From Variovorax sp. (GTDB taxonomy: Bacteria > Pseudomonadota > Gammaproteobacteria > Burkholderiales > Burkholderiaceae_C): a stretch of 64,000 bases of DNA. Below are positions 48,613 through 64,000 of the stretch, one piece after another. The stretch is from the NCBI GenBank assembly GCA_017744285.1, contig JAGIBP010000001.1:1-64000 (forward strand), read 5' to 3'. Position 1 is the stretch's first letter; every line of letters starts with the position of its first letter. The position numbers were made by a program, and so were the translations under genes. A model generated the notes under the pieces. The model was given only the letters and a program-made list of their open reading frames with translations. It ran no database searches and was not told the origin of the DNA.

Positions 48613-49407
48613 TCAACTGCCGCTGAACCGGGGCTTGCGCCGCTCCTTGAACGCCTCGCGCCCTTCCGCGAAATCGCGGCTTTGCGCGGTCATGGCCTCG
48701 CGCTCGCGCAGGGCCTTCATGTCGATGCGCCCTTGCGCGATCTCGTTCAATGACTTCTTGGTGGCCTGCACGGCCAGGGGCGCGAGGTCCGCGACTTCGG
48801 CGACCAGGCGCGCCACCGCTTCGTCGAAGTCCGCCGCGTCGGCGATCTCTTCGAGGCAGCCCATGCGCCACAGCCGCTCGGCCGTGAAGGGCCGCGCGCT
48901 CAGGAAGGCGCGCTTGGCGCCCGAGGCGCCCAGGCGCGCCACGTAGCGCTGGAGGCCGCTCGGGTAGTAGTGCAAGCCGAGCGCCGCGGCCGGCATGCGG
49001 AACTCGATGTCCGCGAGGGCCACGCACAGGTCGCAGGCGAGCATCAGGTCGGTCGCTCCGCCATACACGCTGCCATTGAGCGCGCACACCGTGATCGGCC
49101 GCAGCGCCGCCAGCGCATCGGCGACGCGCTCGAACAGGCCCGGGTCGTCGCCGTCGCTGTCGAAGCTGCCGATGTGGTAGCCCGAGCAGAACACCGGCCG
49201 CGGCTGGCCCTGCGTATGGGCGGTGAGGGTCAACACGCGAATGCCCGGGTCGGCGTCGATCTGCGCGAAGTGGCGCAGCAGCGCGCGCAGGTCGCCGACC
49301 TCCAGCCGGTTGCGATGCGCGGGGCGGTTGAGGGTGATGGTCGCGACGGGGCCCTCCACCGACAGGAGCGGTTCGGAGGGCGAGGTCATCGATTCGGGAA
49401 CAGTCAT
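48613..49407 (-). CDS. Enoyl-CoA hydratase/isomerase family protein
   Basis: A 264-residue crotonase-fold protein. The oxyanion holes are SGYHIGSF and NGSVYGGATDLMLACD. The usual catalytic Glu after GG is Asp in GGATDL, so the reaction may not be simple hydration. It is the last gene of the 12-kb catabolic operon, 11 bp after the first RraA-like gene. Confidence 0.85.
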   Translation of the reverse strand: MTVPESMTSPSEPLLSVEGPVATITLNRPAHRNRLEVGDLRALLRHFAQIDADPGIRVLTLTAHTQGQPRPVFCSGYHIGSFDSDGDDPGLFERVADALAALRPITVCALNGSVYGGATDLMLACDLCVALADIEFRMPAAALGLHYYPSGLQRYVARLGASGAKRAFLSARPFTAERLWRMGCLEEIADAADFDEAVARLVAEVADLAPLAVQATKKSLNEIAQGRIDMKALREREAMTAQSRDFAEGREAFKERRKPRFSGS

Positions 49408-49418
49408 TCAGGGCGCCT

Positions 49419-50081
49419 TCATTTCCAGCCGTAGACCGCAAGCGTACCTTCGCCGGCCTCCAGGCGGCGGAGGATGGCGGCCTCCTCGGCTTCGCGCCGC
49501 GTGCCGGCGGCGATCACGTCGGCGGCGCGCGCCTGCGGGATGGCCACCACGCCGTCGTCGTCGCCCACCACGAGGTCGCCCGCGTGGACCACCACGTCGC
49601 CCATGGTGACCGGATGGTTGATCCAGCCGATGGCGCCGAAGTCCTTGCCCGTGCCGCGGATGCACAGGCCGCGCGCGAAGACCGGGAAGCCGATCTCGCC
49701 GAGCAGCACGCCGTCGCGCACGCAGCCGTCGATGACGAGGCCCGCGAGGCCGCGCACCTTGGCCATGGTGGTCATGATCTCGCCCCAGTAGCCGTGCTCG
49801 TACGCGCCGCCCGTGAAGACCACGAGCACGTCGCCGGGCTGCGCGACGTCGAGCGCGCGGTGCAGCCACAGGTTGTCGCCGCCCGGCGAATGCACGGTGA
49901 GCGCCGAGCCTGCGAAGCGGAAGCGGGGTGCCACCGGCTTGATGGCCGAGGGCAGCGCGCCGATCTTGCCGCCGGCCTCGTGCAGGGTGGCGGTGGGCAG
50001 GCGCGCGGCGGCGGCCGCCAGTTCGGAGCGCAGGCGCTGGAAGTCCAGGCGGGTGGTGAGGGCCGGGTCGTGCTTCTTCAT
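49419..50081 (-). CDS. RraA/LigK-like protein 1
   Basis: A 220-residue member of the RraA/HMG-CHA aldolase fold. It has GDVLVV, the active-site DGCVRD pair and GDLVVGDDDGVVAIP. Enzymes of this fold cleave 4-carboxy-4-hydroxy-2-oxoadipate to pyruvate and oxaloacetate or decarboxylate oxaloacetate. A GTG at 50090 is an alternative start. It shares its fold and operon with two other copies. Confidence 0.85.
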   Translation of the reverse strand: MKKHDPALTTRLDFQRLRSELAAAAARLPTATLHEAGGKIGALPSAIKPVAPRFRFAGSALTVHSPGGDNLWLHRALDVAQPGDVLVVFTGGAYEHGYWGEIMTTMAKVRGLAGLVIDGCVRDGVLLGEIGFPVFARGLCIRGTGKDFGAIGWINHPVTMGDVVVHAGDLVVGDDDGVVAIPQARAADVIAAGTRREAEEAAILRRLEAGEGTLAVYGWK

Positions 50082-50086
50082 GCGAT

Positions 50087-50761
50087 TCACGCGCTCTCGC
50101 GCGTCTGGAGCTGGTGGTACTTGAACTGCTTGCGCGCCTCGTCCAGGCGCATGCCGCCGCGCACCGCTTCGCGGATGCGGCTTTCGGCCGCGTCGATGGC
50201 CTCGGCGGCATCGAGCACCCTGCCCTCGTGCTCCTTCGGGATCACGATCACGCCATCCGAATCGCCGATCACGATGTCGCCGGGCGCCACGCGCGCATCG
50301 CCGATGTTCACCGGAACGCCGGTCGCCTCGACCTGCACGCGGTCCTTGCCGGTGCGCATCCAGTGGTCCTTGCTGAACACGGGGTAGCCCAGTTGGCGGC
50401 AGAGCCAGGTGTCGCGGCAGACGCCGTCGATCAGGGTCCCCGCGATGCCGCGGCGGTGCGCGATCTCGGTCAGGATGTCGCCCCACACGGTGGCGTTGTC
50501 GCGCCCGCCGTTGTCGAGCACGATGACGCTGCCCGGCGGCACGTCGTCGATGTAGTCGCCCACGGTGCCGGGCGGATTGCCCGCCGGCCCGTAGAGCAGC
50601 GTCCAGGCGCGGCCCGCCATGCGGAAGCCGCTGTCGCGCGGCTTGATGCGGTAGCACTGGCCGGCGATGCCGAGCTTGTCGAGCGCGTCGCTCAGCGTGG
50701 CGGTGTCGAAGCGCGCGGCGCGCGCGACCTGCGGGTCCGGGTGGTCTGTCCTGGTGTTCAT
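50087..50761 (-). CDS. RraA/LigK-like protein 2
   Basis: A 224-residue paralogue: TLSDALDKLGIAGQC at the N-terminus, GTLIDGVCRDT active site, and GDIVIGDSDGVIVIPKEHE. The C-terminal 50 residues (EAIDAAESRIREAVRGGMRLDEARKQFKYH in part) form a helical extension. Among the three it looks most like classical CHA aldolases. It overlaps gene 3 by 4 bp. Confidence 0.88.
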   Translation of the reverse strand: MNTRTDHPDPQVARAARFDTATLSDALDKLGIAGQCYRIKPRDSGFRMAGRAWTLLYGPAGNPPGTVGDYIDDVPPGSVIVLDNGGRDNATVWGDILTEIAHRRGIAGTLIDGVCRDTWLCRQLGYPVFSKDHWMRTGKDRVQVEATGVPVNIGDARVAPGDIVIGDSDGVIVIPKEHEGRVLDAAEAIDAAESRIREAVRGGMRLDEARKQFKYHQLQTRESA

Positions 50762-51435
50762 GCGTTCTGTTCCAGCATATGTTCGTAGTTGCCGCCCATC
50801 ACTTCGCCGATGGGCGTTCCGCCGAGGATGGCCTTGGCCATCGCGGCTTCCTTGGCGACGATGGTCTCGGCCGCGTCGAGCACGCGCCCGATGTCCGCCG
50901 CCGCGATGAAGATCACCGCGCTGCGATCGGCCAGCACGTAGTCGCCGGGCCGCACCGTGACTTCGCCGCCGGCCGCGGCGCGGATCGTCACCGGCACCTG
51001 CACGCCGAGTTCGACCACGCGGCCGCGCGCGGTGCGCGAGGTCAGGCTGCGGCTCCAGACCGGGAACTCGTAGGCCATCGCCTCGTCGACGTCGCGCAGC
51101 GGCCCGTCCGCGACGACGCCGGCCACGCCGCGCACCTTGGCGCCGAGCGTGAGCAGGCCGCCCCAGCAGCCGGCCTCGACGCCCGAGCGCTGCTCGACCA
51201 CGATCACGTCGTCCGCGCCCGCGTGCTCGATGGCCGTGCAGCCGAGGTGCTTCGGCGGCCCGGGTGGCGGCGTGCCGGGACCGACCTTCATCGTCACGGC
51301 ACGGCCGGCGATGCGGCCTGCGCCGCTGCGCTGCGGCAGGCCGGTGACGGCACCCGGAAGCGCGAGTTTGTCCAGGGCATCGGAAACCGCGCAGGCATCG
51401 AGCCGGCGCAGGCGTTGTACGTTGGGATCGGTCAT
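50758..51435 (-). CDS. RraA/LigK-like protein 3
   Basis: A 225-residue paralogue with CAVSDALDKLALPGAV, VVADGPLRDVDEA active site and GDYVLADRSAVIFI. The metal-loop DDDG/DSDG of the other two is DRSA here, so its function may differ. It lies 10 bp after the LigB-like gene. Confidence 0.85.
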   Translation of the reverse strand: MTDPNVQRLRRLDACAVSDALDKLALPGAVTGLPQRSGAGRIAGRAVTMKVGPGTPPPGPPKHLGCTAIEHAGADDVIVVEQRSGVEAGCWGGLLTLGAKVRGVAGVVADGPLRDVDEAMAYEFPVWSRSLTSRTARGRVVELGVQVPVTIRAAAGGEVTVRPGDYVLADRSAVIFIAAADIGRVLDAAETIVAKEAAMAKAILGGTPIGEVMGGNYEHMLEQNA

Positions 51436-51445
51436 GGGTCGGTCT

Positions 51446-52447
51446 TCAGAAAAGTGTCTTCCACGCCGCGAAGGCGAGGCCAGTGCCGGTCAGCGCGGGC
51501 GTGCGGTAGCCCGGCACGTATTCGATCCACTCCAGGTCGAGGTCGCGCGCCATCTCGCCGACGACCAGCCAGTTGCGGATCTCGGAGCTGCCGGCCTGCA
51601 GTTGCTTCGGATCGAGCGCGGCGAGCGTGGCGCTGTCCTTGTCGCGGATGGCCTGGATGATCTTGCGGTCGAGTTCCTCGTCGACCACGAAGTGGCTGAG
51701 GCCGCCCGAGGCGATCACGCCGACGCGGATGTCCTCGGGCCAGGCGGCGATTAGCTCGCGCAGCGCACGGCCGAGCGCGACGCAGCGGCGCGGCGTCGGC
51801 TGGTTCGGCGGATCGAAGGTGTTGAGGATCACCGGGATCACCGGCAGTTCGTAGTCCTTGAAGAGACGGCGGTGGACGAACTGGAAGGCGTGGCCCTCGA
51901 ACTGGCCGCGTTCGAGCCCGTCCATGGCGGTGATGTCGAAGTCGCGCTCGCACAACTGGCGGATCAGCCACTCGGCCAGATCGCTCTTCACCGGGTACTC
52001 GCGGTCCACCTCCGGCTCGTGCCGCCACATGCGCGCGGACTTGACCCAGTTGTCGCCGGGCGCGGCCGGTTCGCGCGCGGTGTTGCGGATCGTCGCGCCG
52101 TAGTAGATGGCGAAGGCGGGGTTGTTGGTGGTGCGGAAGAGCTCGGTCTGGTCGTCGCCGACGATCAGCAGCACATCGAGGCGCGCCTCGCGGATGCGGC
52201 GGCCGAGCTCGTCCATGGCGGCCTGCGCGGCGTCGAAGCGCGCGCTCATCTTCTCGGGGGTCACCATCGCTTCCGAATCGGGCGGCGCGGCGGCCAGCAG
52301 CGCGTCGTAGTCGGTCTTGTCGCCGCGCTTGTCGTAGTAGTGCGGGTTCTTCGTGTCGATGACGCGGAAGCCGTGCTGCCAGTCCTCGCGCTGCGAGACC
52401 AGCATGATGCTGTGGGAGGAGCCGAAGGCGGCTGCAAGCTTTGCCAT
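51446..52447 (-). CDS. LigB-family (class III extradiol dioxygenase-like) protein
   Basis: A 333-residue LigB-superfamily protein expected to act in aromatic ring cleavage. His12 (GSSHS) and Glu289 fit the iron ligands of LigB, and His252 (SGGLSHF) the second-shell base. The second iron ligand, usually His in GNDH, is Gln100 in VGDDQTELF. The protein is about 30 residues longer than LigB. Whether it is an active dioxygenase is therefore uncertain. It is between the RraA genes and the CoA-transferase gene. Confidence 0.82.
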   Translation of the reverse strand: MAKLAAAFGSSHSIMLVSQREDWQHGFRVIDTKNPHYYDKRGDKTDYDALLAAAPPDSEAMVTPEKMSARFDAAQAAMDELGRRIREARLDVLLIVGDDQTELFRTTNNPAFAIYYGATIRNTAREPAAPGDNWVKSARMWRHEPEVDREYPVKSDLAEWLIRQLCERDFDITAMDGLERGQFEGHAFQFVHRRLFKDYELPVIPVILNTFDPPNQPTPRRCVALGRALRELIAAWPEDIRVGVIASGGLSHFVVDEELDRKIIQAIRDKDSATLAALDPKQLQAGSSEIRNWLVVGEMARDLDLEWIEYVPGYRTPALTGTGLAFAAWKTLF

Positions 52448-52470
52448 GCGCGTTCTTTCACTGGTTAATT

Positions 52471-53703
52471 TCAGACGACGTGCCGCGCACGCCATTGCGC
52501 GATCTGCTCGCGCCCGTAGCCCAGGTCGCCCAGGATGGCGTCGGTCTGGTCGCCCTGGTGCGGCGCGGGTTCCATCGGCCCTTCGCTGCGCGGGTGGCGC
52601 GAGAACTGCATCGGCAGCCCCACCACCGCGATGTCGCCGAGTTCGGGATGATGCATCGGCCGCGCCATGCCGAGGTGCCGCACTTGCGGGTCGTCGAACA
52701 TGCGGTCCACCGTGTGGATGGGCCCGCAGGGCACGCCCGCCTTCAGCAGGCGCTCGGTCCATTCGGCGGTGGTGCGCGTCCTGAACACTTCGCCGACGGC
52801 GGCGTTGACGCGCGCGCGGTTCTGCACCCGCTCAGGGTCGGAGCCGAAGCCCGGTTCCTGCACGAGCTGCGGCACCTCCAGCGCCTCGCACAGCCGCCGC
52901 CACATCGTCTGTCCGATGGCCGCGAGGTTGATGTGGCCGTCGCGCGTCTGGAACACGCCGGTGGGCACGGTCAGCGGGTGCTCGTTGCCGGTGGAGGTCG
53001 GCACCTTGCGATCGATCAGCCACTGCGCGGCCTGGAAGTCGAGCATCGCGATCTGCGCTTCGAGCAGCGAGGTCTGCACCCATTGCCCTTCACCGGTCGC
53101 ATCGCGCTCCAGCAGCGCGGCCATGATCGCCTGCGCGCAGAAGTGCCCCGCGCACAGGTCGGCGATCGGGATGCCGACGCGCATCGGCCCGTCACCGGGC
53201 TTGCCCGTGACGCTCATGAGCCCGCCCATGCCCTGCGCGATCGAATCGAAGCCGGGCCAGTTCGCATAAGGCCCGTCCTGGCCGAAGCCCGAGATGCTCG
53301 CGTAGACCAGCCGCGGGTTGATCGCGCGCAGCGCGTCCGGGCCGATGCCCAGGCGGTACTTCACGTCGGGCCGGTAGTTCTCGATGAAAACGTCGGCGTG
53401 CGCGACCAGCCGCTGCAGGATCTCGCGCCCCTCGGGCTCCTTCATGTTGAGCGTCAGGCTCTGCTTGTTGCGGTGCAGGTTCTCGTAGTCCGCGCGGTTG
53501 TGGTCGCGCCCGCCGATCATGTCGTCGCCGCCGGGCGCACCCGGCGGAATCTCGAGCTTGATCACGCGCGCCCCGAGGTCGGCGAAGGTGCGGATCGCGG
53601 TCGGGCCGGCGCGCACGCGCGTGGCGTCGAGGATCGTGAAGCGCGACAGCGGGCCTCGGCGCGCCGTGTCGTGGGCCTGGGCATCGGGCATGCGGGTCTC
53701 CAT
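52471..53703 (-). CDS. CaiB/BaiF family CoA transferase
   Basis: A 410-residue class III CoA transferase that moves CoA between carboxylic acids through an Asp anhydride. It shows RFTILDATRVRAGP, HRNKQSLTLNMKEPEG, FIENYRPDVKYRLGIG and PIADLCAGHFCAQAI, where the aspartate is the probable nucleophile. The ATG at 53703 overlaps the DUF35 stop; a GTG lies one codon earlier. It would activate an acid substrate in the pathway. Confidence 0.9.
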   Translation of the reverse strand: METRMPDAQAHDTARRGPLSRFTILDATRVRAGPTAIRTFADLGARVIKLEIPPGAPGGDDMIGGRDHNRADYENLHRNKQSLTLNMKEPEGREILQRLVAHADVFIENYRPDVKYRLGIGPDALRAINPRLVYASISGFGQDGPYANWPGFDSIAQGMGGLMSVTGKPGDGPMRVGIPIADLCAGHFCAQAIMAALLERDATGEGQWVQTSLLEAQIAMLDFQAAQWLIDRKVPTSTGNEHPLTVPTGVFQTRDGHINLAAIGQTMWRRLCEALEVPQLVQEPGFGSDPERVQNRARVNAAVGEVFRTRTTAEWTERLLKAGVPCGPIHTVDRMFDDPQVRHLGMARPMHHPELGDIAVVGLPMQFSRHPRSEGPMEPAPHQGDQTDAILGDLGYGREQIAQWRARHVV

Positions 53704-54107
53704 CACAAGGTTGTGAACATGGGCACGGCGTGGCCGCCGTCGCTGGGCTTGAAGACGACGCGCACCGGCTGGCCGATCGCGACCGCCGCCGGGTCGCAGT
53801 CCACCAGGTTGGTCATCAGCGTGACGCCTTCATCGAGCGTGACGAAGGCCAGCGTGTAGGCGGCCTCTCCCTTGCCCATGGTGCTGAACGAATACACCGT
53901 GCCGGTGCCGGCGGCCTGCAACCACTCGGTGTCGGCACTCAGGCAGTGCGGGCAGATGTCGCGCGGGTAGTGATGCACTTCGCCGCAGGCTCTGCACTTC
54001 TTGACGAGCAGGCGGCCTTCGTCGGCGGCGGTCCAGTAGGGCAGCGATTCGGGCAGCACGCGCGGCGCGGGGATGCGGCGCGCGGCGCCTGGGGTGGGTG
54101 TGCTCAT
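53703..54107 (-). CDS. DUF35 OB-fold/zinc-ribbon protein
   Basis: A 134-residue protein with a four-cysteine zinc ribbon (CRACGEVHHYPRDICPHC) followed by an OB fold (GTGTVYSFSTMGKGEAAYTLAFVTLDEGV in part). DUF35 proteins pair with thiolase-like enzymes as acyl-CoA-binding partners. Adjacent to the thiolase gene, 5 bp away, it probably forms a complex with it. Confidence 0.9.
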   Translation of the reverse strand: MSTPTPGAARRIPAPRVLPESLPYWTAADEGRLLVKKCRACGEVHHYPRDICPHCLSADTEWLQAAGTGTVYSFSTMGKGEAAYTLAFVTLDEGVTLMTNLVDCDPAAVAIGQPVRVVFKPSDGGHAVPMFTTL

Positions 54108-54112
54108 GGTCT

Positions 54113-55324
54113 TCAGAGTCTTTCGAGGATCAGGGTGCCGGCGGTGTGGCGCGAGGCCAGCGCGCCGCCAATGCCGCTCGCGAGCGCGAGGCCGCAGTTC
54201 GGCACCTGCACCGCGGGATGCGCCTCGCCGCGCAACTGGCGAACGGCCTCGATGACCTTGGTGACGCCGCCGCGGTTGGCCGGATGGTTGTTGCACAGCC
54301 CGCCGCCGTCGGTGTTGAAGGGCAGCTTGCCGACGCCGGAGATGAGGTTGCCGTCGGCCACGAAGCGGCCGCCCTCGCCTTTCCTGCAGAAGCCGAGGTC
54401 CTCCAGCTGCATGAGCACCGTGATGGTGAAGCTGTCGTAGAGCGAGGCGTACTGGATGTCGGCCGGCGTCACGCCGGCTTCGGCAAAGGCGAGCGGCCCG
54501 GACCACGCGGCCGCCGAATAGGTGAGGTCGAGCTTGCCGCCCATGCCGTGCTTGGGCGCCTCGCCGGTGCCGCGCACCTTGACCAGCGGGCGCTTGAGCT
54601 CGCGCGCGATCTCGGGGCGCGCGACGATGAGCGCGCCGCCGCCGTCGCTCATCACGCAGCAGTCCAGTCGATGCAGCGGGTCGCTCACCATCGGCGAACC
54701 CACGACGTCGGCGACCGTGACCACATCGCGCAGCATCGCGTGGGGGTTGTGCTGCGCGTGGTGCGAGGCCGCGACCTTGATCCAGGCGAGCTGTTCGCTG
54801 GTGGTGCCGAACTCGTGCATGTGGCGCTTCGCCACGGCCGCATAGAGGTTCTGCGTGGCCGGGCCGTAGGGCAGCTCGAACGCGAGCTCGGGCGCGTCGG
54901 GGTCTGGCGGCTTGAGCGCCAGCCGCGGCGGCCCGCCCGCCTTGCCGGACGCGGCAGCGGCGGCCTGCGCTTGCGCCATCGCCGCGCGCGGCCGTCCGGC
55001 CAGCGTGATGAGCGCGACGTTGCAGCGCCCGGCCGCGATGGCCTCGGCCGCGTGCGCGACATGCAGGATCGGCGCCGAGCCGCCGCACTCGGTCGAATCC
55101 ACGTGGCGCAGCTTGAGGCCGAGGTATTCGGCCATCGTGGTGGTTCCCAGGCCGGGCGCGTCGCCGGCGCAGAAATAGCCGTCGATGTCGTGTTTCGTGA
55201 GGCCGGCGTCTTCGAGCGCGCCCTTGGCGACGTCGGCGTGCAGGCGCACCACCGACAGCTCGTCCGCCTTTCGCGTGGGGTGTTCGTAGGCGCCGACGAT
55301 GTAGGCGGATCCGTTGAGGCTCAT
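54113..55324 (-). CDS. Thiolase-family protein (SCP-x/Ltp2 type)
   Basis: A 403-residue thiolase-fold protein. Cys80 in STECGGSAP is at the nucleophile position. NNHPANRGG corresponds to the HP motif and CGLALASGIGG to the C-terminal motif. It is of the SCP-x-like branch, which includes thiolases and retro-aldolases. Its pairing with DUF35 supports an Ltp2/ChsH2-like retro-aldol role, but thiolysis cannot be excluded. Confidence 0.88.
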   Translation of the reverse strand: MSLNGSAYIVGAYEHPTRKADELSVVRLHADVAKGALEDAGLTKHDIDGYFCAGDAPGLGTTTMAEYLGLKLRHVDSTECGGSAPILHVAHAAEAIAAGRCNVALITLAGRPRAAMAQAQAAAAASGKAGGPPRLALKPPDPDAPELAFELPYGPATQNLYAAVAKRHMHEFGTTSEQLAWIKVAASHHAQHNPHAMLRDVVTVADVVGSPMVSDPLHRLDCCVMSDGGGALIVARPEIARELKRPLVKVRGTGEAPKHGMGGKLDLTYSAAAWSGPLAFAEAGVTPADIQYASLYDSFTITVLMQLEDLGFCRKGEGGRFVADGNLISGVGKLPFNTDGGGLCNNHPANRGGVTKVIEAVRQLRGEAHPAVQVPNCGLALASGIGGALASRHTAGTLILERL

Positions 55325-55361
55325 GTTGATTCAGTCGTCTTGAAACTTGCGCGGCCCGTCG

Positions 55362-56339
55362 TCACTGTTCAGGCGTGAAGCCGGACGCCTTGATGATCGG
55401 CCCCCAGTACGCGAGCTCCTTGCGCTGCAGGCGCTCCATCTCCTCGGCCGGGCGGAAATCCGGGGTCAGCGTCGCCTTGGCGGTCAGGATGTCCCGCACC
55501 TCGGGCAGCCCCAGCACGTGCTGCAGCGCGTTCTGCATGCGCTCGACCTGCGCGGGCGGCGTCTTCGCGGGCGCCCACATGCCGGTCCAGGCGTCGCCGG
55601 CGTCGATGTCGATGCCCTGCTCCTTGAAGGTCGGCACGTCGGGCATCAGCGGCGAGCGCTTCGCGCCGAACACGGCGATCACGCGCACCCTGCCGGAGGC
55701 CTGGTGCGGAAGGATGTCGCCGGCGGTCATCACGCCCGCGGCCACCTGGCCGCCGAGCAGGTCGGTGACCAGCGGACCGTTGCCGCGATAGGGCACCGCC
55801 TGCAGCTTGATGCCCATCGCCTTGCCGAGTTCGAGGCCGCTGAAGTGGGTCTGGCCGCCGGCGCCCGCGGTGCCGAAGCTCGCCTTCTCGGGGTGCGCCT
55901 TGGCCCAGGCCATGAACTCCTGCCCGGTCTTGACGCCCGTGTCCTGGCCGACCGCCAGCGCCAGCGGGTACGACACCATCACCGCCACCGGCGCGAAGTC
56001 CTTGAGCATGTCGTACTTCAGCGTCGACGGCGGATACAGCAGCGTCTGGAACACCGGCGTGGCGTTGGGCGCGATCATGAACGTGAGCCCGTCCGGCGCG
56101 CTCGCCTTGAGCGCCTGCGCGGCCAGCCGTCCGCCTGCGCCGGGCTTGTTCTCGATGATGATCGGCTGCTTGAGCACCACCGACATCTTGTCCGCCAAGA
56201 GGCGCGCCACGGTATCGGTGGAGCCGCCGGGCGGAAAGCCCACGAGGATCTTGATCGGCTGGTCGGATTGGGCGGACGCCGCCGTCGAAATGCCCAGAAG
56301 GGCGGCGAGCAGCGCCGCGTTGAAGGTCTTGCGATTCAC
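55362..56339 (-). CDS. Bug-family solute-binding protein
   Basis: A 325-residue periplasmic binding protein with signal peptide (RKTFNAALLAALLGISTAASAQ), VGFPPGGSTDTVARLLA, IENKPGAGGRLAAQAL and SFGTAGAGGQTHFSGLEL. It starts at GTG 56339 with AGGAGA upstream. Inside the catabolic operon it suggests that the pathway substrate is an imported carboxylate. No TctAB genes are nearby. Confidence 0.92.
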   Translation of the reverse strand: MNRKTFNAALLAALLGISTAASAQSDQPIKILVGFPPGGSTDTVARLLADKMSVVLKQPIIIENKPGAGGRLAAQALKASAPDGLTFMIAPNATPVFQTLLYPPSTLKYDMLKDFAPVAVMVSYPLALAVGQDTGVKTGQEFMAWAKAHPEKASFGTAGAGGQTHFSGLELGKAMGIKLQAVPYRGNGPLVTDLLGGQVAAGVMTAGDILPHQASGRVRVIAVFGAKRSPLMPDVPTFKEQGIDIDAGDAWTGMWAPAKTPPAQVERMQNALQHVLGLPEVRDILTAKATLTPDFRPAEEMERLQRKELAYWGPIIKASGFTPEQ

Positions 56340-56391
56340 TTTGCCTGTCTCCTGTTGTTGATCTCTCGAAACGGTGGCGCGCGCCGGGGCC

Positions 56392-57519
56392 TCAGCCGCC
56401 TGCGGCGCCCGGGGTGCCCATGCGCCGCAGGTGCCACGCGGCATCGCCAAGGAGCTGCCCGATCACCATCAGCCGCTTGGCGTAGTGGCCCACGCGGCAT
56501 TCGTCGGTCATGCCCATGGCGCCGTGCATCTGGATGGCGGCGAGCGCGATCTGGCGGCCCTGCTGGCTCGCCAGCACCTTGGCGGCCGAAACGAGCCGGC
56601 GGCGCCGGGCGGCATCGCCCGCCTCGACCGCCATCGCCGCGGCGCAGGCCATGGACTTGAGCTGTTCGAGCCCGATCGCCATGTCGGCCACGCGGTGCTG
56701 CAGCACCTGGAACTTCGCCAGCGGCGCGCCGAACTGGCGGCGCGTGCGCAGGTGTTCGGCGGTGAGCGCCAGCAGCGCCTCGACCGCGCCCGCGCTCTCG
56801 GCGCACAGGGCCGCGACGGCGGCGTCGAGCGCCGCCTCGGCGGCCTCGCCGGCGGCACCGCGCGCGCCGAGCAGGCGATCGGCGCCGACCTGGACGCGTT
56901 CGAAGCGCACATGCGCGGCACGGCGGCCATCGAGGGTGTCGAAGCCCTGCACCTGCACGCCCGGCGCATGGGCATCGACCGCGAACAGGCTGAGCCCGGC
57001 GTCCCCGTCGATGCGCGCGGCCACGAGCAGCAGGCCGGCGGTGTCGCCATGCAGCACGAGCCGCTTGCGGCCCTCCAGCACGTGGCCGCCGAGCGTCTCG
57101 GTGGCCTGGGTCTTCGCCTCCTGCCAGTCGTAGCGCAACCCGTCCTCGTAGAGCGCCACGCTCGCCTGCAGCCGGCCGGCGGCCAGGGCCGGCAGCCATT
57201 GCCGCTGCTGGGCCGGCGATCCGAGCCGGCGCAGCAGTTCCCCGGCCATCACGGTGCTGGCCAGGAAGGCGCCGCCACCGAGCGCGCGGCCGAGCTCCTG
57301 CGCCACCAGCATCACCTCGATGGCGCCCTGCCCGGTGCCGCCGAAGTCGGCCGCGAAGGGCAGGCTCAGGAGGCCGAGCTCGCCCATCGCACCCCAGCGC
57401 CGGTCCGACTGCTCGCGCGTCTCGGGGTTGCCGCGATGTTCGGCGGGGTACTCGCCGTCGCAGAAGCGGCGCACCGCGTCGCGCAGCGCCAGATGGTCGT
57501 CGTTGAGCGAAAAGTCCAT
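56392..57519 (-). CDS. Acyl-CoA dehydrogenase 1 (beta-type subunit)
   Basis: A 375-residue acyl-CoA dehydrogenase fold protein with a short N-terminus (DFSLNDDHLALRDAVRRFC), RRQFGAPLAKFQVLQHRVADM and IQMHGAMGMTDECRVGHYAKRL. It resembles the smaller subunit of heteromeric steroid-type dehydrogenases. The start at 57519 was chosen for its DFSLNDD beginning. It is 7 bp after acyl-CoA dehydrogenase 2, so an alpha2-beta2 enzyme is likely. Confidence 0.88.
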   Translation of the reverse strand: MDFSLNDDHLALRDAVRRFCDGEYPAEHRGNPETREQSDRRWGAMGELGLLSLPFAADFGGTGQGAIEVMLVAQELGRALGGGAFLASTVMAGELLRRLGSPAQQRQWLPALAAGRLQASVALYEDGLRYDWQEAKTQATETLGGHVLEGRKRLVLHGDTAGLLLVAARIDGDAGLSLFAVDAHAPGVQVQGFDTLDGRRAAHVRFERVQVGADRLLGARGAAGEAAEAALDAAVAALCAESAGAVEALLALTAEHLRTRRQFGAPLAKFQVLQHRVADMAIGLEQLKSMACAAAMAVEAGDAARRRRLVSAAKVLASQQGRQIALAAIQMHGAMGMTDECRVGHYAKRLMVIGQLLGDAAWHLRRMGTPGAAGG

Positions 57520-57526
57520 GGTGGTC

Positions 57527-58716
<1,190 letters not shown>

Positions 58717-58720
<4 letters not shown>

Positions 58721-60864
58721 GCCTGGCCCACCACGAGCGCATCGAGCGCCAGCACCGGCGGATTCGCACCGGCCGGATAGGCGACGAGCGGGTTGATGTC
58801 GATCTCGCTGATGCGCGGGTTCGCGCGCATCTGCTCGCCGACGCGCGCCACCACGCGGGCGATCGCCCGCAGGTCCACGCCGGCCTCGCCGCGCGTGCCG
58901 CGCAGCACGGCGGCGGCCTTCAGACGACCGAGCTCGACCACGATGTCTTCCTCGGCCATGTCGGCCGGGATCAGCCGCACGTCCTTGAGCGCCTCGATCC
59001 AGATGCCGCCGAGCCCCACGAGCACGACCGGCCCCCACTCGGGATCGCGCTTGGCGCCGACGACGAGTTCGAGGCCGCGCGGCCCCATGGCCTCGACCAG
59101 CGCCCCGTCGAGCTGCAGGCCGGGGCGGTGGCGCCCGACGTTGTCGTGCAGCCGCTGCCAGCCTTCTCGCAGCGCCGCCTCGTCGGCCAGGCCGACGAGC
59201 ACGCCGCCGACGTCGCTCTTGTGCGGCAGTTCGCTGGCCTGCGCCTTGAGCACCACCGGGAAGCCGATGTCGCGGGCCACGCGCACCGCTTCGTCGGCGC
59301 TGCGCGCCAGCGCGCCGCGCGGCACCGGCAAGCCGGCCTGTGCCAGCCACGCCTTGCCCTGGTATTCGGGAAAGATGCCGTTGGCGGGCACCGCCCCCGG
59401 CAGCGGCAGCGCGCGCGGCTCGCCTTGCGCGGACCGCGCCGCGCGTTGCAGTGCCTCGCCGTAGGCCGCCACGCGGCGCAGCGCGCGCAAGGCGCGGTCG
59501 GCCGAGCGGAACAGCGGCACGCCGCTCTCGCGGATCGCGTCGGTGAAGAAGGGCTCGATCGGACTCGCGTCGCCGGTCAGCACCAGCACCGCGGGCTTGC
59601 GTGCGCGGGCAATGGCGGGAACGATGTGCTCGGCCTTGTCCTTCTGGGCCACCACCGGGCCCACGGGGATCGCGAGCACGATGCTGCCGATGCGCACGTC
59701 GTCCAGCATGGTCAGCAGCAGCTCGCCGATGAGGCCCGGCTGGCGCACGCCGATGGTGGTGTAGTCGAGCGGGTTCTCGGCCACCGCATAGGGCGGGAGC
59801 ATCGCGCGCAGCTTGTCGACCGTGCCGGGTTCGAGTTCCGGCAGTTCCAGGCCGAGGTCGTCGGCGAAGTCGAGCGCGATGTTCTTCATCGCGCCGGAGC
59901 CGGTCATGAAGGCGGCGCCACCGACCGGCGGCTGCGGATAGCGCAGCAGGATCGCCGTGGTGTCGAGCAGTTCGTCGAGCGACTCGACCACCACCACGGC
60001 CTCGCGGCGCAGCAGCGCGGTCGCCGTGGCGTGGTCGCCGGCCAGCGCGCCGGTGTGCGACTGCGCGGCCTCGCGCGCCCGCTCGCTGCGCCCCGGCATC
60101 AGCAGCACCAGCGGCTTGCCCTTGACGCGCGCCTCGGCGGCCAGCTGCATGAAGAGGCGTGGGCGGCGGATCTGCTCCGCATAGACCACGATGACGCGGG
60201 TCTGCGCGTCTCCGAGGTAGTGCGCCACCACGTCCTCGGCGCACAGCGACACCTCGTTGCCGGTCGAGAAGACCGAGGTGACCGGCACGCCGTTGCCCAG
60301 GAAGGCATCGCGCAGGGTCGCCGCCATGAAGCCGCTCTGCGCCACCACGCCGACGCCGGGGCGCTGCTCGCGCTCGCGCGCCGCCAGCGGCTCGAAAGTC
60401 ACGGGCACGCCGCCCGCGAGGTTGGTGAAGCCCATGCAGTTCGGCCCCACGAGCACGATGCCGGCCTCGTGCGCGGCGCGTGCCAGCGCCTCCTGCTTCG
60501 CCTGCCCTTCCTCGCCGGCTTCGGCATAGCCCGAGGCGAAGAGCACCGCCGCATGGCAGCGGCGTGCCGCCAGCGCCGTGACGGCATCGAGCACGCCGGC
60601 CTCGGGGATCGCCAGCACGGCCAGATCGATGTCTTCGGGCAGCTCGGCCACCGACTTCACGCAGGGACGGCCGTTGATCTCGGCGCTGCTGCGGCTCACG
60701 AGGTGCAGCGCGCCCTCGTAGCCGAAGCGCTCCAGGTTGCCCTGGACGAAGCCGCCGAAGGAGCGCGGGTCCGCCGAGGCGCCGACGATGGCGATGGTGC
60801 GCGGCGCCATGACGCGCCGCAGGTCCGCGCTGCCTGCAGGTCGAGATGGGAATTTGGCATTCAT
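58717..60864 (-). CDS. ADP-forming acyl-CoA synthetase
   Basis: A 715-residue acetate-CoA ligase (ADP-forming) family protein. Domains in order: CoA-binding Rossmann (TIAIVGASADPRSFGGFVQGN), succinyl-CoA ligase-like regions with phosphohistidine site SHTGALAGD, and C-terminal ATP-grasp (LLPADMAEEDIVVELG is near it). It activates an acid to its CoA ester. The ATG at 60864 lies about 1 nt from the inferred start point of the operon promoter, so its transcript could be leaderless. Confidence 0.9.
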
Positions 60865-60871
60865 GTGGATG

Positions 60872-60899
60872 ATTCTGGCATACACAGAACGCTTGTCAA
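60872..60899 (-). promoter_or_regulatory. Promoter of the 12-kb catabolic operon
   Basis: On the minus strand TTGACA (60894-60899), 16 bp, CAGAAT (60872-60877). GCATAC, shared with the GntR palindrome, occurs inside the spacer at 60878-60883, suggesting direct repression. Confidence 0.5.
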
Positions 60900-61067: not shown

Positions 61068-61092
61068 CATACCACCAATCACAGGTGGTATG
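61068..61092. promoter_or_regulatory. Candidate GntR operator
   Basis: CATACCACC, 7 bp, GGTGGTATG: a perfect 9-bp inverted repeat ending 8 bp before the gntR ATG. It would cover the leader of the regulator gene. Confidence 0.65.
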
Positions 61093-61100
61093 TTTCAGCC

Positions 61101-61841
61101 ATGGAATCCGAGCAAGACCCCTCCCTTCTTTCCGACGAAGACGCTTCCGCCGAGGAATCGCGCCGCCGCGGCGGCCGCGCCAACGAGATCCGCACCGTGA
61201 TCCAGGAAGAGATCGAGAGCGGCAACCTGCCCCCCGGCACGCCGCTCGACGAACGCGCGCTGGCCGCCCGCTTCCAGGTGTCGCGCACGCCGGTGCGCGA
61301 GGCGCTCCAGCAACTGGCGGCGCGCGACCTCGTGCGCATCGCGCCGCGCCAGGGCGTGAGCGTGGCGCGGCTGTCCATCAGCCAGGTGCGCGCCATCATG
61401 GAAAGCATCGGCGAACTCGAGGCACTCGCGGCCAAGCTCGCCGCCCGCCGGGTCGACGACCCGCTGCGCGCCCGGCTCGACGACGCCATCCGCCGCGGCC
61501 AGGACGCCGCGGTGCAGGGCGGCGCGGCCGAATACGCGATCGCCAACACCTTCTTCCACGAGACCGTCTATGACGGCGCGCGCAATCCGTACATCGCCGA
61601 ACTCATCCGCAATGCGCGCCGGCAGATCCAGCGCTACCGCCTGAAGGACTTCCGCACCAAGGCGCAGATCAGCAAGTCGCTGCAGGACCACCTGCGCGTG
61701 GCGCGCGCCATCCAGGACGGGGACGAGGCGCTCGCGGCGCAGGCCATGCTGCTGCACGTGCCTTCCGGCTCCACGGGCTTTTCGGAGTTCCTCGCGCGCA
61801 TGCCGATGAGCTTCTTCGAGAGCGAAACCGCGGACCACTGA
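61101..61841 (+). CDS. GntR-family regulator (FadR/FCD subfamily)
   Basis: A 246-residue regulator with an N-terminal winged HTH (LDERALAARFQVSRTPVREALQQLAARDLV, in part) and an all-helical FCD effector domain (RAIMESIGELEALAAKLAARR; FFHETVYDGARNPYIAELIRNAR). FCD domains commonly sense carboxylic acids. Its gene divides the two catabolic arms and is preceded by a palindromic operator, so local regulation of both arms is likely. Confidence 0.92.
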   Translation: MESEQDPSLLSDEDASAEESRRRGGRANEIRTVIQEEIESGNLPPGTPLDERALAARFQVSRTPVREALQQLAARDLVRIAPRQGVSVARLSISQVRAIMESIGELEALAAKLAARRVDDPLRARLDDAIRRGQDAAVQGGAAEYAIANTFFHETVYDGARNPYIAELIRNARRQIQRYRLKDFRTKAQISKSLQDHLRVARAIQDGDEALAAQAMLLHVPSGSTGFSEFLARMPMSFFESETADH

Positions 61842-61879
61842 AATCCCCCACCTTCCCCATCTCGAAGGACCCCTTGCGC

Positions 61880-62266
61880 ATGACATCCTCCGGACGCTCC
61901 ATCGACCTGCCGGGCGCCTCGCACAACGCGCCGATCCCCGCCGGTGCACGCGTCGGCAACATCCTGTGTTCCTCCGCCATCGGGGGCAAGGACCCGGCCA
62001 CCGGCCAGCTGCCCGAAGACATGGCGGCGCAGGCCCGCCATGCGTTCGCCAACCTGCGCGCGCTGCTCGAAGCCGGCGGCGCCACGCCGGCCGACGTGGT
62101 CAAGCTCGCCGTCACCGTGCGCGACAACACGGTGCGCGATGCGATCAATGCCGAGTGGCTGGCCCTGTTTCCCGATCCTCACGACCGCCCGGCGCGCCAC
62201 ATCACGGTGGTTCCGCTGCAGCACGGCATGTGGCTGCAGCTCGAGGTGATGGCCGTCATTCGATAG
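61880..62266 (+). CDS. RidA-family protein
   Basis: A 128-residue RidA/YjgF-fold protein. It has ILCSSAIGGKDPATGQLPED, a GATPADVVKLAVTV strand and the C-terminal ARHITVVPLQHG. Family members hydrolyse reactive enamines or act as deaminases, for example 2-aminomuconate deaminase in aromatic amine pathways. The arginine typical of imine-cleaving RidA is not obvious at the C-terminus. It is cotranscribed with the LigJ-like gene. Confidence 0.88.
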   Translation: MTSSGRSIDLPGASHNAPIPAGARVGNILCSSAIGGKDPATGQLPEDMAAQARHAFANLRALLEAGGATPADVVKLAVTVRDNTVRDAINAEWLALFPDPHDRPARHITVVPLQHGMWLQLEVMAVIR

Positions 62267-62309
62267 ACCCCCCAGACATCAGACCCACGACATCCGGAGA
62301 CGCTTCTTC

Positions 62310-63314
62310 ATGATCATCGATTCGCACGCCCACATCGTCATGCCGCCCGAGAGCTTCCGCTTCATGGCGGAACTGGTCGGCGGCCGCGCCAACCCGAATA
62401 CGCTGCCCAAGATTCCCGAGGCCTCGGTGCGCAAGGTGGCCGAGGAGCTCGTCAAGAGCATGGACGCCGTGGGCACCGACATCCAGTTCATCTCGCCGCG
62501 CCCCTACCTGCAGATGCACTCGGTCAAGCCCGGCCGGGTGGCCGAGCTGTGGAGCATGCACTGCAACGACCTCATCGCGCGCTTCGTCGAGATGTTCCCC
62601 GACCGCTTTCGCGGCGTCGCCGGGCTGCCGCAGTACATGGACGAGCCGCTCGAGCTGCGCGCCATTCCCGAGCTGCGCCGCTGCGTGACGCAGCACGGCT
62701 TCGTCGGCTGCCTGATCAACCCCGACCCGACCGAGGGGCAGGGCGATCCCCCGGGGCTGGGGGATCCGTTCTGGCATCCGCTCTACCAGGCCATGACCGA
62801 ACTCGACGTGCCGGGCCTGATCCACTCCGCCGGCAGCTGCAGCGCGCGCGAGTCGTACACGCTGAAGTTCATCAACGAGGAGAGCATCGCGGTCATCTCG
62901 CTGCTCGGCGCGAAGACCTTCGACGCCTTCCCCGATCTGAAGATCGTGGTCGCGCACGCCGGCGGCGCGATCCCCTACCAGATGGGGCGCTTCCGCTCGT
63001 GGAATGTGCGCAAGGGCGAAAAGGAGACCTTCGACGAGCAACTGCGCAAGCTCTACTTCGACACCTGCAACTACAGCCAGGAAGCGATCGAGCTGCTGGT
63101 GAAGGTGGTGGGCAGCGACAACGTGCTCTTCGGCACCGAGAAGCCCGGCACCGGCAGCTCGCGCGACCCGATCAGCGGGCGCGACTACGACGACATGAAG
63201 CCGGTGATCGAGAGCATCGAGTGGCTCACCGACAAGCAGCGCACCGACATCTTCGAATGCAACTGCAAGCGCGTGTACCCGCGCGCCTTCCGCCGCGACG
63301 AGGACTGCCGCTGA
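62310..63314 (+). CDS. Amidohydrolase of the LigJ type (4-oxalomesaconate hydratase-like)
   Basis: A 334-residue amidohydrolase-fold protein. His6 and His8 (DSHAH), His172 (LIHSAG) and Glu277 (FGTEKPG) fit the LigJ zinc ligands His6, His8, His178 and Glu284; most family members have Asp at the last position. FGTEKPGTGSSRDPISGRDYDD resembles the LigJ C-terminal block. LigJ hydrates 4-oxalomesaconate in the 4,5-cleavage pathway of protocatechuate. A gamma-resorcylate-like decarboxylase is the main alternative. It pairs with the RraA/LigK proteins. Confidence 0.82.
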   Translation: MIIDSHAHIVMPPESFRFMAELVGGRANPNTLPKIPEASVRKVAEELVKSMDAVGTDIQFISPRPYLQMHSVKPGRVAELWSMHCNDLIARFVEMFPDRFRGVAGLPQYMDEPLELRAIPELRRCVTQHGFVGCLINPDPTEGQGDPPGLGDPFWHPLYQAMTELDVPGLIHSAGSCSARESYTLKFINEESIAVISLLGAKTFDAFPDLKIVVAHAGGAIPYQMGRFRSWNVRKGEKETFDEQLRKLYFDTCNYSQEAIELLVKVVGSDNVLFGTEKPGTGSSRDPISGRDYDDMKPVIESIEWLTDKQRTDIFECNCKRVYPRAFRRDEDCR

Positions 63315-63345
63315 GGCGGCCCGACCCCCTTCTGGAGACGCTCTC

Positions 63346-64000
63346 ATGCCGCTGAGCAAGGAAGACAACTATCTGCTGACCCGCGTCGAGCACGGCGCAC
63401 CCATGGGCGAGATGATCCGCCAGCACTACTGGCTGCCGGCCGTGCCCTCGTCCAAGCTCGAAGCCGACGGCGCGCCGGTGCGCATCCGCCTGCTGGGCAA
63501 GAACTACGTGGCCTTTCGCGCCACCGACGGCGCGGTGGGCGTGCTCGACGAGCAGTGCCCGCACCGCAAGGCTTCGCTCGCGCTGGCGCGCAACGAGGAC
63601 AACGGCCTGCGCTGCATCTACCACGGCTGGAAGTTCAACGTCAAAGGCGAGGTGGTCGAAGCCCCCAACCACACCGGCGACCAGGCCCAGTTCTGCCAGC
63701 ACGTGCGCGTGAACCGCCACACCGCGGCCGACCGCGGTGGCATCGTCTGGGTCTGGCTCGGCGAAGGCGACACGCCGCCGCCCTTCCCCGACCTGCCCTT
63801 CATCGACCTGCCCGCGCACCAGCGCTCGGTGACCAGCGTCGAGGTGCCGACCAACTGGGTGCAGGGCGTGGAAGCGTCGATGGACTCGTCGCACGTGGGC
63901 GTGCTGCACGAGTCCACCACGCAGATCACGGCCGGCGGCGGCAACGAGCGGATGCTGATGACCAAGGCGCTCGCGCCCAAGCTGGAGTTCGAGGAACGCC
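63346..64000 (+). CDS. Rieske ring-hydroxylating oxygenase, alpha subunit (cut by window end)
   Basis: The first 218 codons of a Rieske oxygenase are present. The [2Fe-2S] motif is CPHRKASL and CIYHGWKF; VPTNWVQGVEASMDSSHVGVLH contains the start of the mononuclear-iron site (Asp-His). The N-terminus (LTRVEHGAPMGEMIRQHYWLPA) resembles phthalate 4,5-dioxygenase and related O-demethylases. It would hydroxylate or demethylate the aromatic substrate. A reductase gene was not seen and may lie beyond the edge. Confidence 0.92.
   Translation, partial: MPLSKEDNYLLTRVEHGAPMGEMIRQHYWLPAVPSSKLEADGAPVRIRLLGKNYVAFRATDGAVGVLDEQCPHRKASLALARNEDNGLRCIYHGWKFNVKGEVVEAPNHTGDQAQFCQHVRVNRHTAADRGGIVWVWLGEGDTPPPFPDLPFIDLPAHQRSVTSVEVPTNWVQGVEASMDSSHVGVLHESTTQITAGGGNERMLMTKALAPKLEFEER

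What the first reader, a model, noticed from the sequence alone, without database searches (positions are those of the whole stretch)
48613..64000. Uncharacterised hybrid catabolic locus: CoA-dependent side-chain removal plus meta-cleavage
One operon and its divergent arm join an ADP-forming acyl-CoA synthetase, paired acyl-CoA dehydrogenases, thiolase/DUF35, CoA transferase and crotonase with a Rieske oxygenase, LigB-like protein, LigJ-like hydratase, three RraA/LigK-like proteins and RidA. I know of no described pathway with this exact set. A substituted aromatic acid whose side chain is trimmed as a CoA ester and whose ring goes through an oxalomesaconate-like intermediate would use all of them. 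RidA plus an amidohydrolase leaves an amino-aromatic substrate as an alternative.
Basis: partly seen in the sequence, partly recalled or inferred. Interest (0 to 1): 0.72.

Follow-up and report, generated by a model that had tools for sequence, protein, structure and literature searches.

The report
Lignin-type side-chain and ring-cleavage cassette
A widespread and apparently unstudied bacterial gene cassette seems to shorten the side chain of a lignin-like aromatic compound and then open its ring, much like a known pathway for two-ring lignin fragments but in other bacteria and with extra steps.

Summary
The gene set is real, and it is a larger unit than the window shows. Twelve minus-strand genes (48613-60810) and a divergent arm (61101 to about 70100, past the window end) form a cassette. 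Of 33 cassette loci found (Burkholderiales, Acidocella, a Rhizobiales MAG, halomonads), 25 hold a complete 11-gene core, all 25 in one order.

It has a precedent. The 5,5'-dehydrodivanillate (DDVA) cluster of Sphingobium SYK-6 holds homologues of 11 of its genes. The 'LigJ-like' protein belongs with LigY, a C-C hydrolase. A second Rieske enzyme, beyond the window, lies in the LigXa clade.

The CoA genes make a complete beta-oxidation cycle. Halomonads carry MaoC and SDR genes in place of the missing dehydrogenase. Some relatives add an alcohol oxidase, an aldehyde dehydrogenase or a thioesterase.

Best reading: the C3 side chain of a 5-substituted (biaryl-type) guaiacyl compound is oxidised as its CoA ester; the ring is then O-demethylated, meta-cleaved, hydrolysed and split by RraA-family aldolases. 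The substrate is unknown; 14 of 17 cassette genomes tested show no LigW, which argues against DDVA itself.

The dioxygenase branch, LigZ included, has Gln where LigAB has an iron-ligand His.

The parts
48613..49389 (-). ECH: crotonase-family protein, last gene of the operon; precise role open
   Evidence: Pfam ECH_1 2e-28; 28 of 33 cassettes
49419..50081 (-). R3: RraA-like protein, resembles LigK/PcmE (HMG/CHA aldolase)
   Evidence: PRK06201 (hypothetical) 1.5e-53, PRK09262 8.5e-52, ligK_PcmE 9.6e-46, all below cut-off; PDB 3noj 2e-36
50087..50761 (-). R2: RraA-like protein, 76% identical to the gene beside LigY in SYK-6
   Evidence: Asp at the 3noj D102 column in 31 of 31
50758..51435 (-). 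R1: RraA-like protein, overlaps R2; lacks the D102-equivalent acid
   Evidence: Gly at that column in 32 of 32
51446..52447 (-). EDO: LigZ-family class III extradiol dioxygenase with Gln at the LigB His61 position
   Evidence: Pfam LigB 1e-14; 36% to SYK-6 LigZ; hhalign 99.7% to LigB/DesB
52471..53703 (-). CaiB-type (class III) CoA transferase
   Evidence: Pfam CoA_transf_3 4e-119
53703..54107 (-). DUF35/ChsH2-type partner of the thiolase
   Evidence: Pfam OB_ChsH2_C and zf-ChsH2
54113..55324 (-). THL: thiolase/Ltp2-superfamily protein
   Evidence: PRK08142 8e-215 over cut-off; residues
55362..56339 (-). Bug (TctC-type) periplasmic binding protein
   Evidence: sequence; not scanned itself, but shares relatives with the 64667 Bug (Pfam TctC); Bug1 in 20 of 33 cassettes
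56392..57519 (-). ADs: acyl-CoA dehydrogenase, PimD-like (small) subunit
   Evidence: pimD_small 2e-81, below cut-off
57527..58720 (-). ADl: acyl-CoA dehydrogenase, PimC-like (large) subunit
   Evidence: pimC_large 2.5e-117, below cut-off
58717..60810 (-). ACS: ADP-forming acyl-CoA synthetase
   Evidence: Pfam ATP-grasp_5, Succ_CoA_lig, CoA_binding_2
60873..60889 (.). Putative operator (TTCTGTGTATGCCAGAA read on the minus strand) in the divergent region
   Evidence: consensus TTCTGG-N3-6-CCAGAA with <=2 mismatches in 15 of 24 divergent regions against 5.6% of shuffled and 6.6% of random segments; motif chosen on the same data
61101..61841 (+). GntR/FCD-type regulator
   Evidence: Pfam GntR and FCD
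61880..62266 (+). RidA-family protein
   Evidence: Pfam Ribonuc_L-PSP 8e-13
62310..63314 (+). AH: LigY-type C-C hydrolase of the amidohydrolase superfamily
   Evidence: PDB 5vn5 (LigY) 1e-79 against 2gwg (LigJ) 1e-66; tree
63346..64000 (+). RO1: Rieske oxygenase, LigXa_C type (continues to 64581 on the contig)
   Evidence: Pfam LigXa_C 3e-32 and Rieske

Best explanation
The locus is one catabolic cassette for a plant (lignin-type) aromatic compound that carries a three-carbon side chain and a carbon substituent ortho to the phenol, 5-5' (biaryl) linked guaiacylpropanoids being the model. Steps, all inferred from homology and conserved gene order: (1) where accessory GMC oxidase and aldehyde dehydrogenase exist, a terminal alcohol becomes the acid; (2) ACS makes the CoA ester; (3) the ADl/ADs pair desaturates it; (4) crotonase hydrates and 3-hydroxyacyl-CoA dehydrogenase oxidises it; (5) THL/DUF35 cleaves off acetyl-CoA; (6) CaiB, or a thioesterase in relatives, recovers the CoA and frees the benzoate-type acid; (7) RO2 with its reductase (perhaps RO1 also) removes the O-methyl group to give a catechol; (8) EDO cleaves the ring beside the substituent; (9) AH hydrolyses the C-C bond, releasing R-COOH and a 4-carboxy-2-hydroxypentadienoate-type piece (CHPD); (10) R1, R2 and R3 turn that piece into pyruvate. 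GntR controls both arms; Bug proteins serve uptake. Shown here: families, order, conservation, tree placement. Not shown: any reaction, the substrate, or co-expression.
For: SYK-6 DDVA cluster (genome named by 100% LigY over 328 aa, and by gene order matching ddvT, ligZ, ligY, ligXa) has homologues of ADs 34%, ADl 48%, ACS 45%, ECH2 52.5%, THL 33%, DUF35 31%, EDO 36%, R1 56%, R2 76%, AH 43%, RO2 59%. AH shares a 100/100 clade with LigY, apart from LigJ; RO2 lies in the LigXa clade, 100/100. R1 and R2 sit with LigY-type AH in 17 of 18 non-cassette stretches examined, and with LigJ-type AH in 0 of 5. Full beta-oxidation: HAD on the cassette's contig in 19 of 22 genomes tested; the 3 without it are halomonads, which carry SDR and MFE-2-type MaoC genes between ADs and THL. 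Accessory GMC oxidase in 11, aldehyde dehydrogenase in 10 (plus one remnant) and 4HBT thioesterase in 12 of 33 loci. AH inside or within about 5 kb of the fetched stretch in 22 of 24 genomes given (one search places against ranges; contig identity inferred from matching coordinates).
Against: No biochemical or expression data. EDO is not a LigZ orthologue: cassette EDOs are a separate clade; AH is in a sister sub-clade of LigY, not in LigY's own. LigW, which follows LigY in SYK-6, was not found at E<=1e-40 in the window genome (a 69% complete MAG) nor in 14 of 17 cassette genomes given; the other 3 have 41-44% homologues on other contigs. R1-R3 are absent although sequence follows EDO in 3 of 33 loci (L037, L042, L076); L042 and L060 have no dehydrogenase pair or CaiB between ACS and EDO. 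The GMC, aldehyde dehydrogenase and thioesterase genes have no match on the 100 kb of the window contig that I read. THL has the Tyr of Ltp2 (Y296) but the His of thiolases (H347), and its C80 is Ser or Thr in 3 of 35, so thiolysis is not proven. RidA and CaiB have no match in the 40 kb read around the SYK-6 DDVA genes. I recognised no dedicated CHPD hydratase.
Confidence: 0.6

Rival explanations
1. Syringylpropanoid route: the cassette degrades dihydrosinapate-type compounds. Beta-oxidation gives syringate, Rieske enzymes demethylate it to 3-O-methylgallate, EDO makes the methyl ester CHMOD, AH acts as its hydrolase, and R1-R3 lead through CHA to pyruvate and oxaloacetate.
For: Explains two Rieske enzymes, the LigK-like R3 and the absence of LigW. 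CHMOD is reported to need a hydrolase (NGC7 paper PMC12314914, passages).
Against: The ring-cleaving MgaAB of that paper is LigAB/GalA-like, and its hydrolase candidate PSN_2689 shares a MenH domain with DesC, so neither resembles EDO or AH. RO2 falls with LigXa and AH with LigY. No LigJ/GalB-type hydratase recognised in the cassette.
Confidence: 0.2
2. The CoA genes act after ring cleavage: AH releases an aliphatic or branched R-COOH (for example from a prenylated or terpenoid-substituted hydroxybenzoate), which ACS, the dehydrogenase pair and THL/DUF35 then degrade.
For: The best PDB relative of ADl and a good one of THL are 4x28 and 6ok1; that these are steroid side-chain enzymes is recalled. 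No aromatic-acid decarboxylase recognised nearby.
Against: SYK-6 keeps homologous CoA genes beside enzymes whose R-COOH is aromatic. Accessory alcohol and aldehyde oxidation fits an entry step.
Confidence: 0.15
3. DDVA itself is the substrate, as in SYK-6, and the CoA genes serve a different compound.
For: LigXa-clade RO2, LigY-type AH and a LigZ-family EDO together.
Against: No LigW in 14 of 17 cassette genomes given; EDO clade distinct from LigZ; the CoA genes lie in the same operon.
Confidence: 0.1
4. Amino-aromatic catabolism, with RidA as an enamine/imine deaminase and the amidohydrolase acting as in the ACMSD family.
For: RidA is in the fetched stretch in 22 of 33 cassettes; ACMSD is a distant relative of AH.
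Against: AH is far closer to LigY (1e-79) than to ACMSD (about 2e-18). I recognised no amino-group chemistry in the set.
Confidence: 0.03

Closest known systems
Sphingobium sp. SYK-6 DDVA cluster (ddvT, ddvK, ligZ, ligY, ligXa)
   Same: Homologues of 11 cassette genes in one region: paired ACADs, ADP-forming ACS, ECH, thiolase, DUF35, LigZ, two RraA genes, LigY, LigXa
   Different: The cassette has CaiB, RidA, a LigK-like third RraA, 3-hydroxyacyl-CoA dehydrogenase, a second Rieske enzyme, a VanB-like reductase, GntR and Bug proteins, for which one search shows no counterpart of their own in the 40 kb read around the SYK-6 genes. No ddvT/ddvK-type transporter or LigW among its called genes. 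EDO is in another clade.
Second SYK-6 LigY/LigZ-like cluster (2.0988-2.1065 Mb, L130); I know of no description of it
   Same: AH 44%, EDO 40.5%, R1 70%, R2 73%, R3 63%, Rieske 36% to RO1
   Different: No match to ACS, ADl, ADs, THL, DUF35 or CaiB within the 20 kb read
[quoted passage not shown]
   Same: Same superfamilies; R3 resembles LigK
   Different: AH is LigY-type, not LigJ-type
BbsA/BbsB thiolase and Ltp2/ChsH2 aldolase
   Same: THL paired with a DUF35 protein
   Different: Active-site residues mixed: Tyr as in Ltp2, His as in thiolases; the roles of these residues are recalled
fde/ifc flavonoid and isoflavone clusters
   Same: Plant aromatic compounds, related hosts (Comamonadaceae, rhizobia)
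   Different: Their ring-cleaving enzyme is described as a putative glyoxalase, not LigB-like (PMC11069340, passages)

Membership tests
DDVA (LigX-LigZ-LigY) pathway | LigXa-type Rieske O-demethylase | tested here: met
   RO2 (beyond the window end) lies in the LigXa clade, 100/100, 59% identity
DDVA (LigX-LigZ-LigY) pathway | LigY-type C-C hydrolase | tested here: met
   AH joins LigY apart from LigJ, 100/100, in a sister sub-clade
DDVA (LigX-LigZ-LigY) pathway | LigZ orthologue | tested here: not met
   Same family, but a separate clade, 36% identity
DDVA (LigX-LigZ-LigY) pathway | 5-carboxyvanillate decarboxylase (LigW) | tested here: not met
   None at 1e-40 in the window MAG and in 14 of 17 cassette genomes given; absence in an incomplete MAG is weak
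DDVA (LigX-LigZ-LigY) pathway | Turnover of DDVA / OH-DDVA | not testable with these tools
   needs enzymes and substrates
LigJ-type oxalomesaconate (PCA 4,5 / gallate) route | LigJ- or GalB-type hydratase | tested here: not met
   AH is not LigJ-type; no other hydratase of this kind recognised among the called genes
Class III extradiol dioxygenase | LigB fold | tested here: met
   By sequence: Pfam LigB over cut-off; hhalign 99.7%; no structure was predicted
Class III extradiol dioxygenase | 2-His-1-carboxylate triad as in LigAB (H12, H61, E242; roles recalled) | tested here: not met
   H12 and E289 present; Q100 at H61 in 77 of 81, also in LigZ. Since LigZ is a described OH-DDVA oxygenase, this does not rule out activity.
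Beta-oxidation of an acyl side chain | Synthetase, dehydrogenase, hydratase, 3-OH-acyl-CoA dehydrogenase and thiolase together | tested here: met
Beta-oxidation of an acyl side chain | THL is a thiolase rather than a retro-aldolase | tested here: inconclusive
   mixed residues
fde/ifc flavonoid cluster | glyoxalase-type dioxygenase FdeC/IfcB | tested here: not met
   The EDO is LigB-type; FdeC/IfcB described as a putative glyoxalase

The most novel reading that the evidence does not exclude
R1 and R2 are a specialised RraA-family pair, perhaps one hetero-oligomeric enzyme, that hydrates and splits the dienoate left by LigY-type hydrolases, a step with no enzyme named in the SYK-6 passages that I saw. 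With them goes a branch of extradiol dioxygenases (LigZ and the cassette EDO) that works with a His-Gln-Glu iron site. The cassette would then be a route for C-C-linked guaiacylpropanoids outside the sphingomonads.
Probability: 0.35. Interest if true: 0.68.

Novelty: new variant of a known kind. Interest (0 to 1): 0.55.

Why it matters
A 2020 paper (PMC8027834, passages) says that depolymerisation pathways for aromatic lignin oligomers had been identified only in sphingomonads. A 2025 paper (PMC12673573, only its listing and start of abstract seen) reports DDVA degradation by Paenibacillus, Agrobacterium and Ochrobactrum strains that carry mhq genes, so the field has widened. This cassette points to a further system, related to that of SYK-6 and spread across classes, in freshwater, soil and saline bacteria, and it couples the ring module to side-chain beta-oxidation. 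It gives concrete candidates for the steps after LigY and for the role of CoA genes beside ligZ/ligY in the SYK-6 model. The Gln at an iron-ligand position in the LigZ branch is a directly testable point of enzyme chemistry.

Tried and rejected
Flavonoid (fde/ifc) pathway: considered because Bradyrhizobium and Rhodococcus plasmids carry the ring core; rejected because FdeC/IfcB is described as a glyoxalase. LigJ reading of the amidohydrolase: rejected by residues and tree. LigZ orthology of EDO: rejected by tree. A DQ motif as a sign of a dead or non-oxygenase enzyme: rejected because LigZ has it too. LigAB-type syringate route of NGC7 as a direct match: rejected.

Led nowhere: literature searches for RidA/RraA/extradiol clusters, for cassette genera, for CoA genes with DDVA, for diferulates and for DDVA in Burkholderiales or cassette genera; no listed title or abstract start described the cassette. 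The library holds open-licence papers only, so this is weak evidence of absence. One search held a two-base third row by mistake and was replaced. One search picked some wrong-strand frames for the LigB set; I rely, built from LigB and DesB only. One search warns of long branches (among them Rkor, G175, G587). Structure prediction was not run.
Full report
WHAT IS THERE. The window lies on a 192 kb contig of a 4.09 Mb MAG rated 69% complete. A codon-usage gene call gives twelve minus-strand genes with gaps of -4 to 52 bp (48613-60810) and, divergently, GntR, RidA, amidohydrolase and a Rieske oxygenase. The divergent arm goes on beyond the window: Bug protein, second Rieske oxygenase, reductase, crotonase and 3-hydroxyacyl-CoA dehydrogenase up to 70099.

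CONSERVATION. Of these, 33 have an EDO at 60% identity or more. In those 33, limited by 10 kb flanks and contig ends, THL and DUF35 occur in 33, CaiB in 31, ACS in 30, ADl, ADs, R1 and R2 in 29, R3 and ECH in 28. In the other 47 loci, counting matches of at least 30% identity, they are rare: ACS 1, ADl 0, ADs 0, THL 1, DUF35 1, R1 2, R2 1, R3 1, ECH 0, but CaiB 8 of 47. All 25 loci with a complete 11-gene core have one order (one has a further EDO-like gene after it). Of the 8 incomplete loci some are cut by contig or fetch ends (L032, L038, L039, L060 at least in part). Real gaps are the lack of R1-R3 after EDO in L037, L042 and L076, of R3 in L043, and of the dehydrogenase pair and CaiB between ACS and EDO in L042 and L060. 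Hosts are Comamonadaceae and relatives, Burkholderiaceae, Acidocella aquatica, a Rhizobiales MAG and three halomonads: a cassette that crosses classes of Pseudomonadota.

THE NEAREST KNOWN SYSTEM. The PDB entry closest to the amidohydrolase is LigY, the C-C hydrolase of DDVA degradation (1e-79), before LigJ (1e-66). A search with LigY among 298 genomes of a sphingomonad family found one with 100% identity over 328 aa. Its gene order matches the published ddvT, ligZ, ligY and ligXa locus tags (table in PMC12997858, passages; PMC6874591, passages), so I treat it as SYK-6. Reading it, the DDVA region runs: ACAD small, ACAD large, ddvT, ACS, ECH, thiolase, DUF35, alpha/beta hydrolase, ddvK, ligZ, RraA, RraA, ligY, ligXa (names of ddvT, ddvK, ligZ and ligXa by position and the published order). 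Identities to the window or contig proteins are 34, 48, -, 45, 52.5, 33, 31, -, -, 36, 56, 76, 43 and 59%. The apparent hybrid of CoA enzymes and ring enzymes therefore exists in a model organism. In the passages that I read the ring genes and transporters are described; the CoA genes and the two RraA genes are not mentioned.

PLACEMENT BY TREES. AH shares a 29-row clade (100/100) with LigY and is apart from LigJ (7 rows); inside that clade AH and LigY are in two sister sub-clades (13 and 16 rows). RO2 lies inside the LigXa clade of 11 rows (100/100). EDO is in its own 36-row clade (100/99; window and two repeated rows included), outside the clade that holds LigZ. So the unit works like the LigX-LigZ-LigY module, but EDO is not a LigZ orthologue.

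THE RraA PAIR. R1 and R2 accompany LigY-type amidohydrolases in 17 of 18 non-cassette stretches examined (the exception, G175, has R1 only; not every LigY-like place was fetched). They accompany LigJ-type ones in 0 of 5 loci (with types). Against this, three cassette loci have no R genes in view. R1 has Gly where 3noj has D102 in 32 of 32 rows; R2 keeps Asp in 31 of 31 and R3 Glu in 29 of 29. That D102 is catalytic is recalled, not from a call. I infer a division of labour within the pair, acting on the dienoate that LigY makes (CHPD; legend in PMC6874591).

THE DIOXYGENASE SITE. Profile alignment to SYK-6 LigB and DesB puts H12, Q100, H252 and E289 on LigB H12, H61, H195 and E242. A segment aligned to an MhpB-type structure agrees at Q100, but its own score is not significant. 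Position 100 is Gln in 77 and His in 4 of 81 rows (the scan favoured Gln). LigZ itself reads GNDQ, so Gln goes with an enzyme described as the OH-DDVA oxygenase. That these LigB residues are the iron ligands and the base is recalled. I do not know whether the change has been discussed in print; I made no dedicated search for it.

THE CoA PART IS A FULL BETA-OXIDATION CYCLE. The 3-hydroxyacyl-CoA dehydrogenase (HAD) has a match at 1e-90 in 19 of 22 cassette genomes given, in each case with one on the cassette's contig; none is found in the three halomonads. There, an SDR gene and an MFE-2-type MaoC hydratase gene lie between ADs and THL. Whether halomonads also lack the second crotonase was not searched genome-wide. 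Replacement of the middle steps by unrelated enzymes is the best evidence that the steps belong to one cycle. Further genes fit entry and exit: GMC oxidase in 11, aldehyde dehydrogenase in 10 plus a remnant in Polaromonas, 4HBT thioesterase in 12 of 33 loci (Pfam). None of these three has a match at 1e-15 on the 100 kb of the window contig that I read. THL keeps Y296 and H347 in 35 of 35 rows and C80 in 32. It aligns with Y294 of 6ok1 (Ltp2, recalled) on one side and with the thiolase His on the other, so thiolysis against retro-aldol cleavage stays open; the dehydrogenase favours thiolysis.

REGULATION. A palindrome TTCTGG-N-CCAGAA lies in the GntR/ACS divergent region with at most 2 mismatches in 15 of 24 loci, against 5.6% of shuffled and 6.6% of random segments. 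I defined the motif on the same data, so this is suggestive only. In the window it is at 60873-60889, with one mismatch.

WHAT SPEAKS AGAINST DDVA ITSELF. LigW, which follows LigY in SYK-6, has no match at 1e-40 in the window MAG and in 14 of 17 cassette genomes given; three have 41-44% matches on other contigs. The released acid is therefore probably not 5-carboxyvanillate, or is handled by another enzyme.

CONCLUSION. Best reading: CoA-dependent shortening of the C3 side chain of a 5-substituted guaiacyl compound, then LigX/LigZ/LigY-like O-demethylation, meta-cleavage and C-C hydrolysis, then RraA-family aldolases. Confidence 0.6 for this scheme as a class; lower for any named substrate. 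The syringylpropanoid rival (0.2) is the one to test first. It is a new variant of a known kind: most parts have a counterpart in SYK-6, but the cassette, its hosts, its extra genes and its likely substrate differ.

Noticed in passing
window 42701-45058 (-): P450 fused to a reductase and a 2Fe-2S ferredoxin domain, beside a Bug-like protein (45072-46043) and an IclR regulator (46146-46973); perhaps another aromatic demethylase or hydroxylase unit
   Followed up: partly
window 47000-48531 (-): HipA-like protein with a small upstream ORF, a likely toxin-antitoxin pair next to the cassette end (the small ORF was not scanned)
   Followed up: no
L130 8838-16469 (G467 2.0988-2.1065 Mb): Second LigY/LigZ/R1/R2/R3/Rieske cluster in SYK-6, closer to the window in EDO and R1 than the DDVA cluster is
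   Followed up: partly
L017 15079-18993, L027 11082-14993, L018 17252-25075: Peanut and Stylosanthes Bradyrhizobium plasmids and a Rhodococcus koreensis plasmid from apple replant soil carry the EDO/amidohydrolase/RidA/R1/R2 core with different partners
   Followed up: partly
L034 5590-5847: Remnant (86 aa aligned) of an aldehyde dehydrogenase inside the Polaromonas cassette, as if an accessory gene had been lost
   Followed up: no
L051 14225-15088 and 18035-19045: BphD/MhpC-like hydrolase and an MhpB-type dioxygenase beside the Acidocella cassette, hinting at phenylpropanoid substrates
   Followed up: partly
L035 and L037: One Comamonadaceae MAG holds two cassette copies; the second lacks R1-R3 and has a second HAD/DUF35/THL/ECH2/Rieske set after EDO
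   Followed up: no
L042 3270-11026: Variant cassette with a GMC oxidase gene and no dehydrogenase pair between ACS and THL
   Followed up: no
L067, L071, L072, L074, L093: Other EDO-family loci pair with a LigJ-type amidohydrolase and lack R1/R2: possibly a gallate- or methylgallate-type branch
   Followed up: partly
window 61068-61092: Perfect 9-bp inverted repeat (CATACCACC N7 GGTGGTATG on the minus strand) just upstream of the GntR start, read by eye in the output; possible autoregulatory site
   Followed up: no
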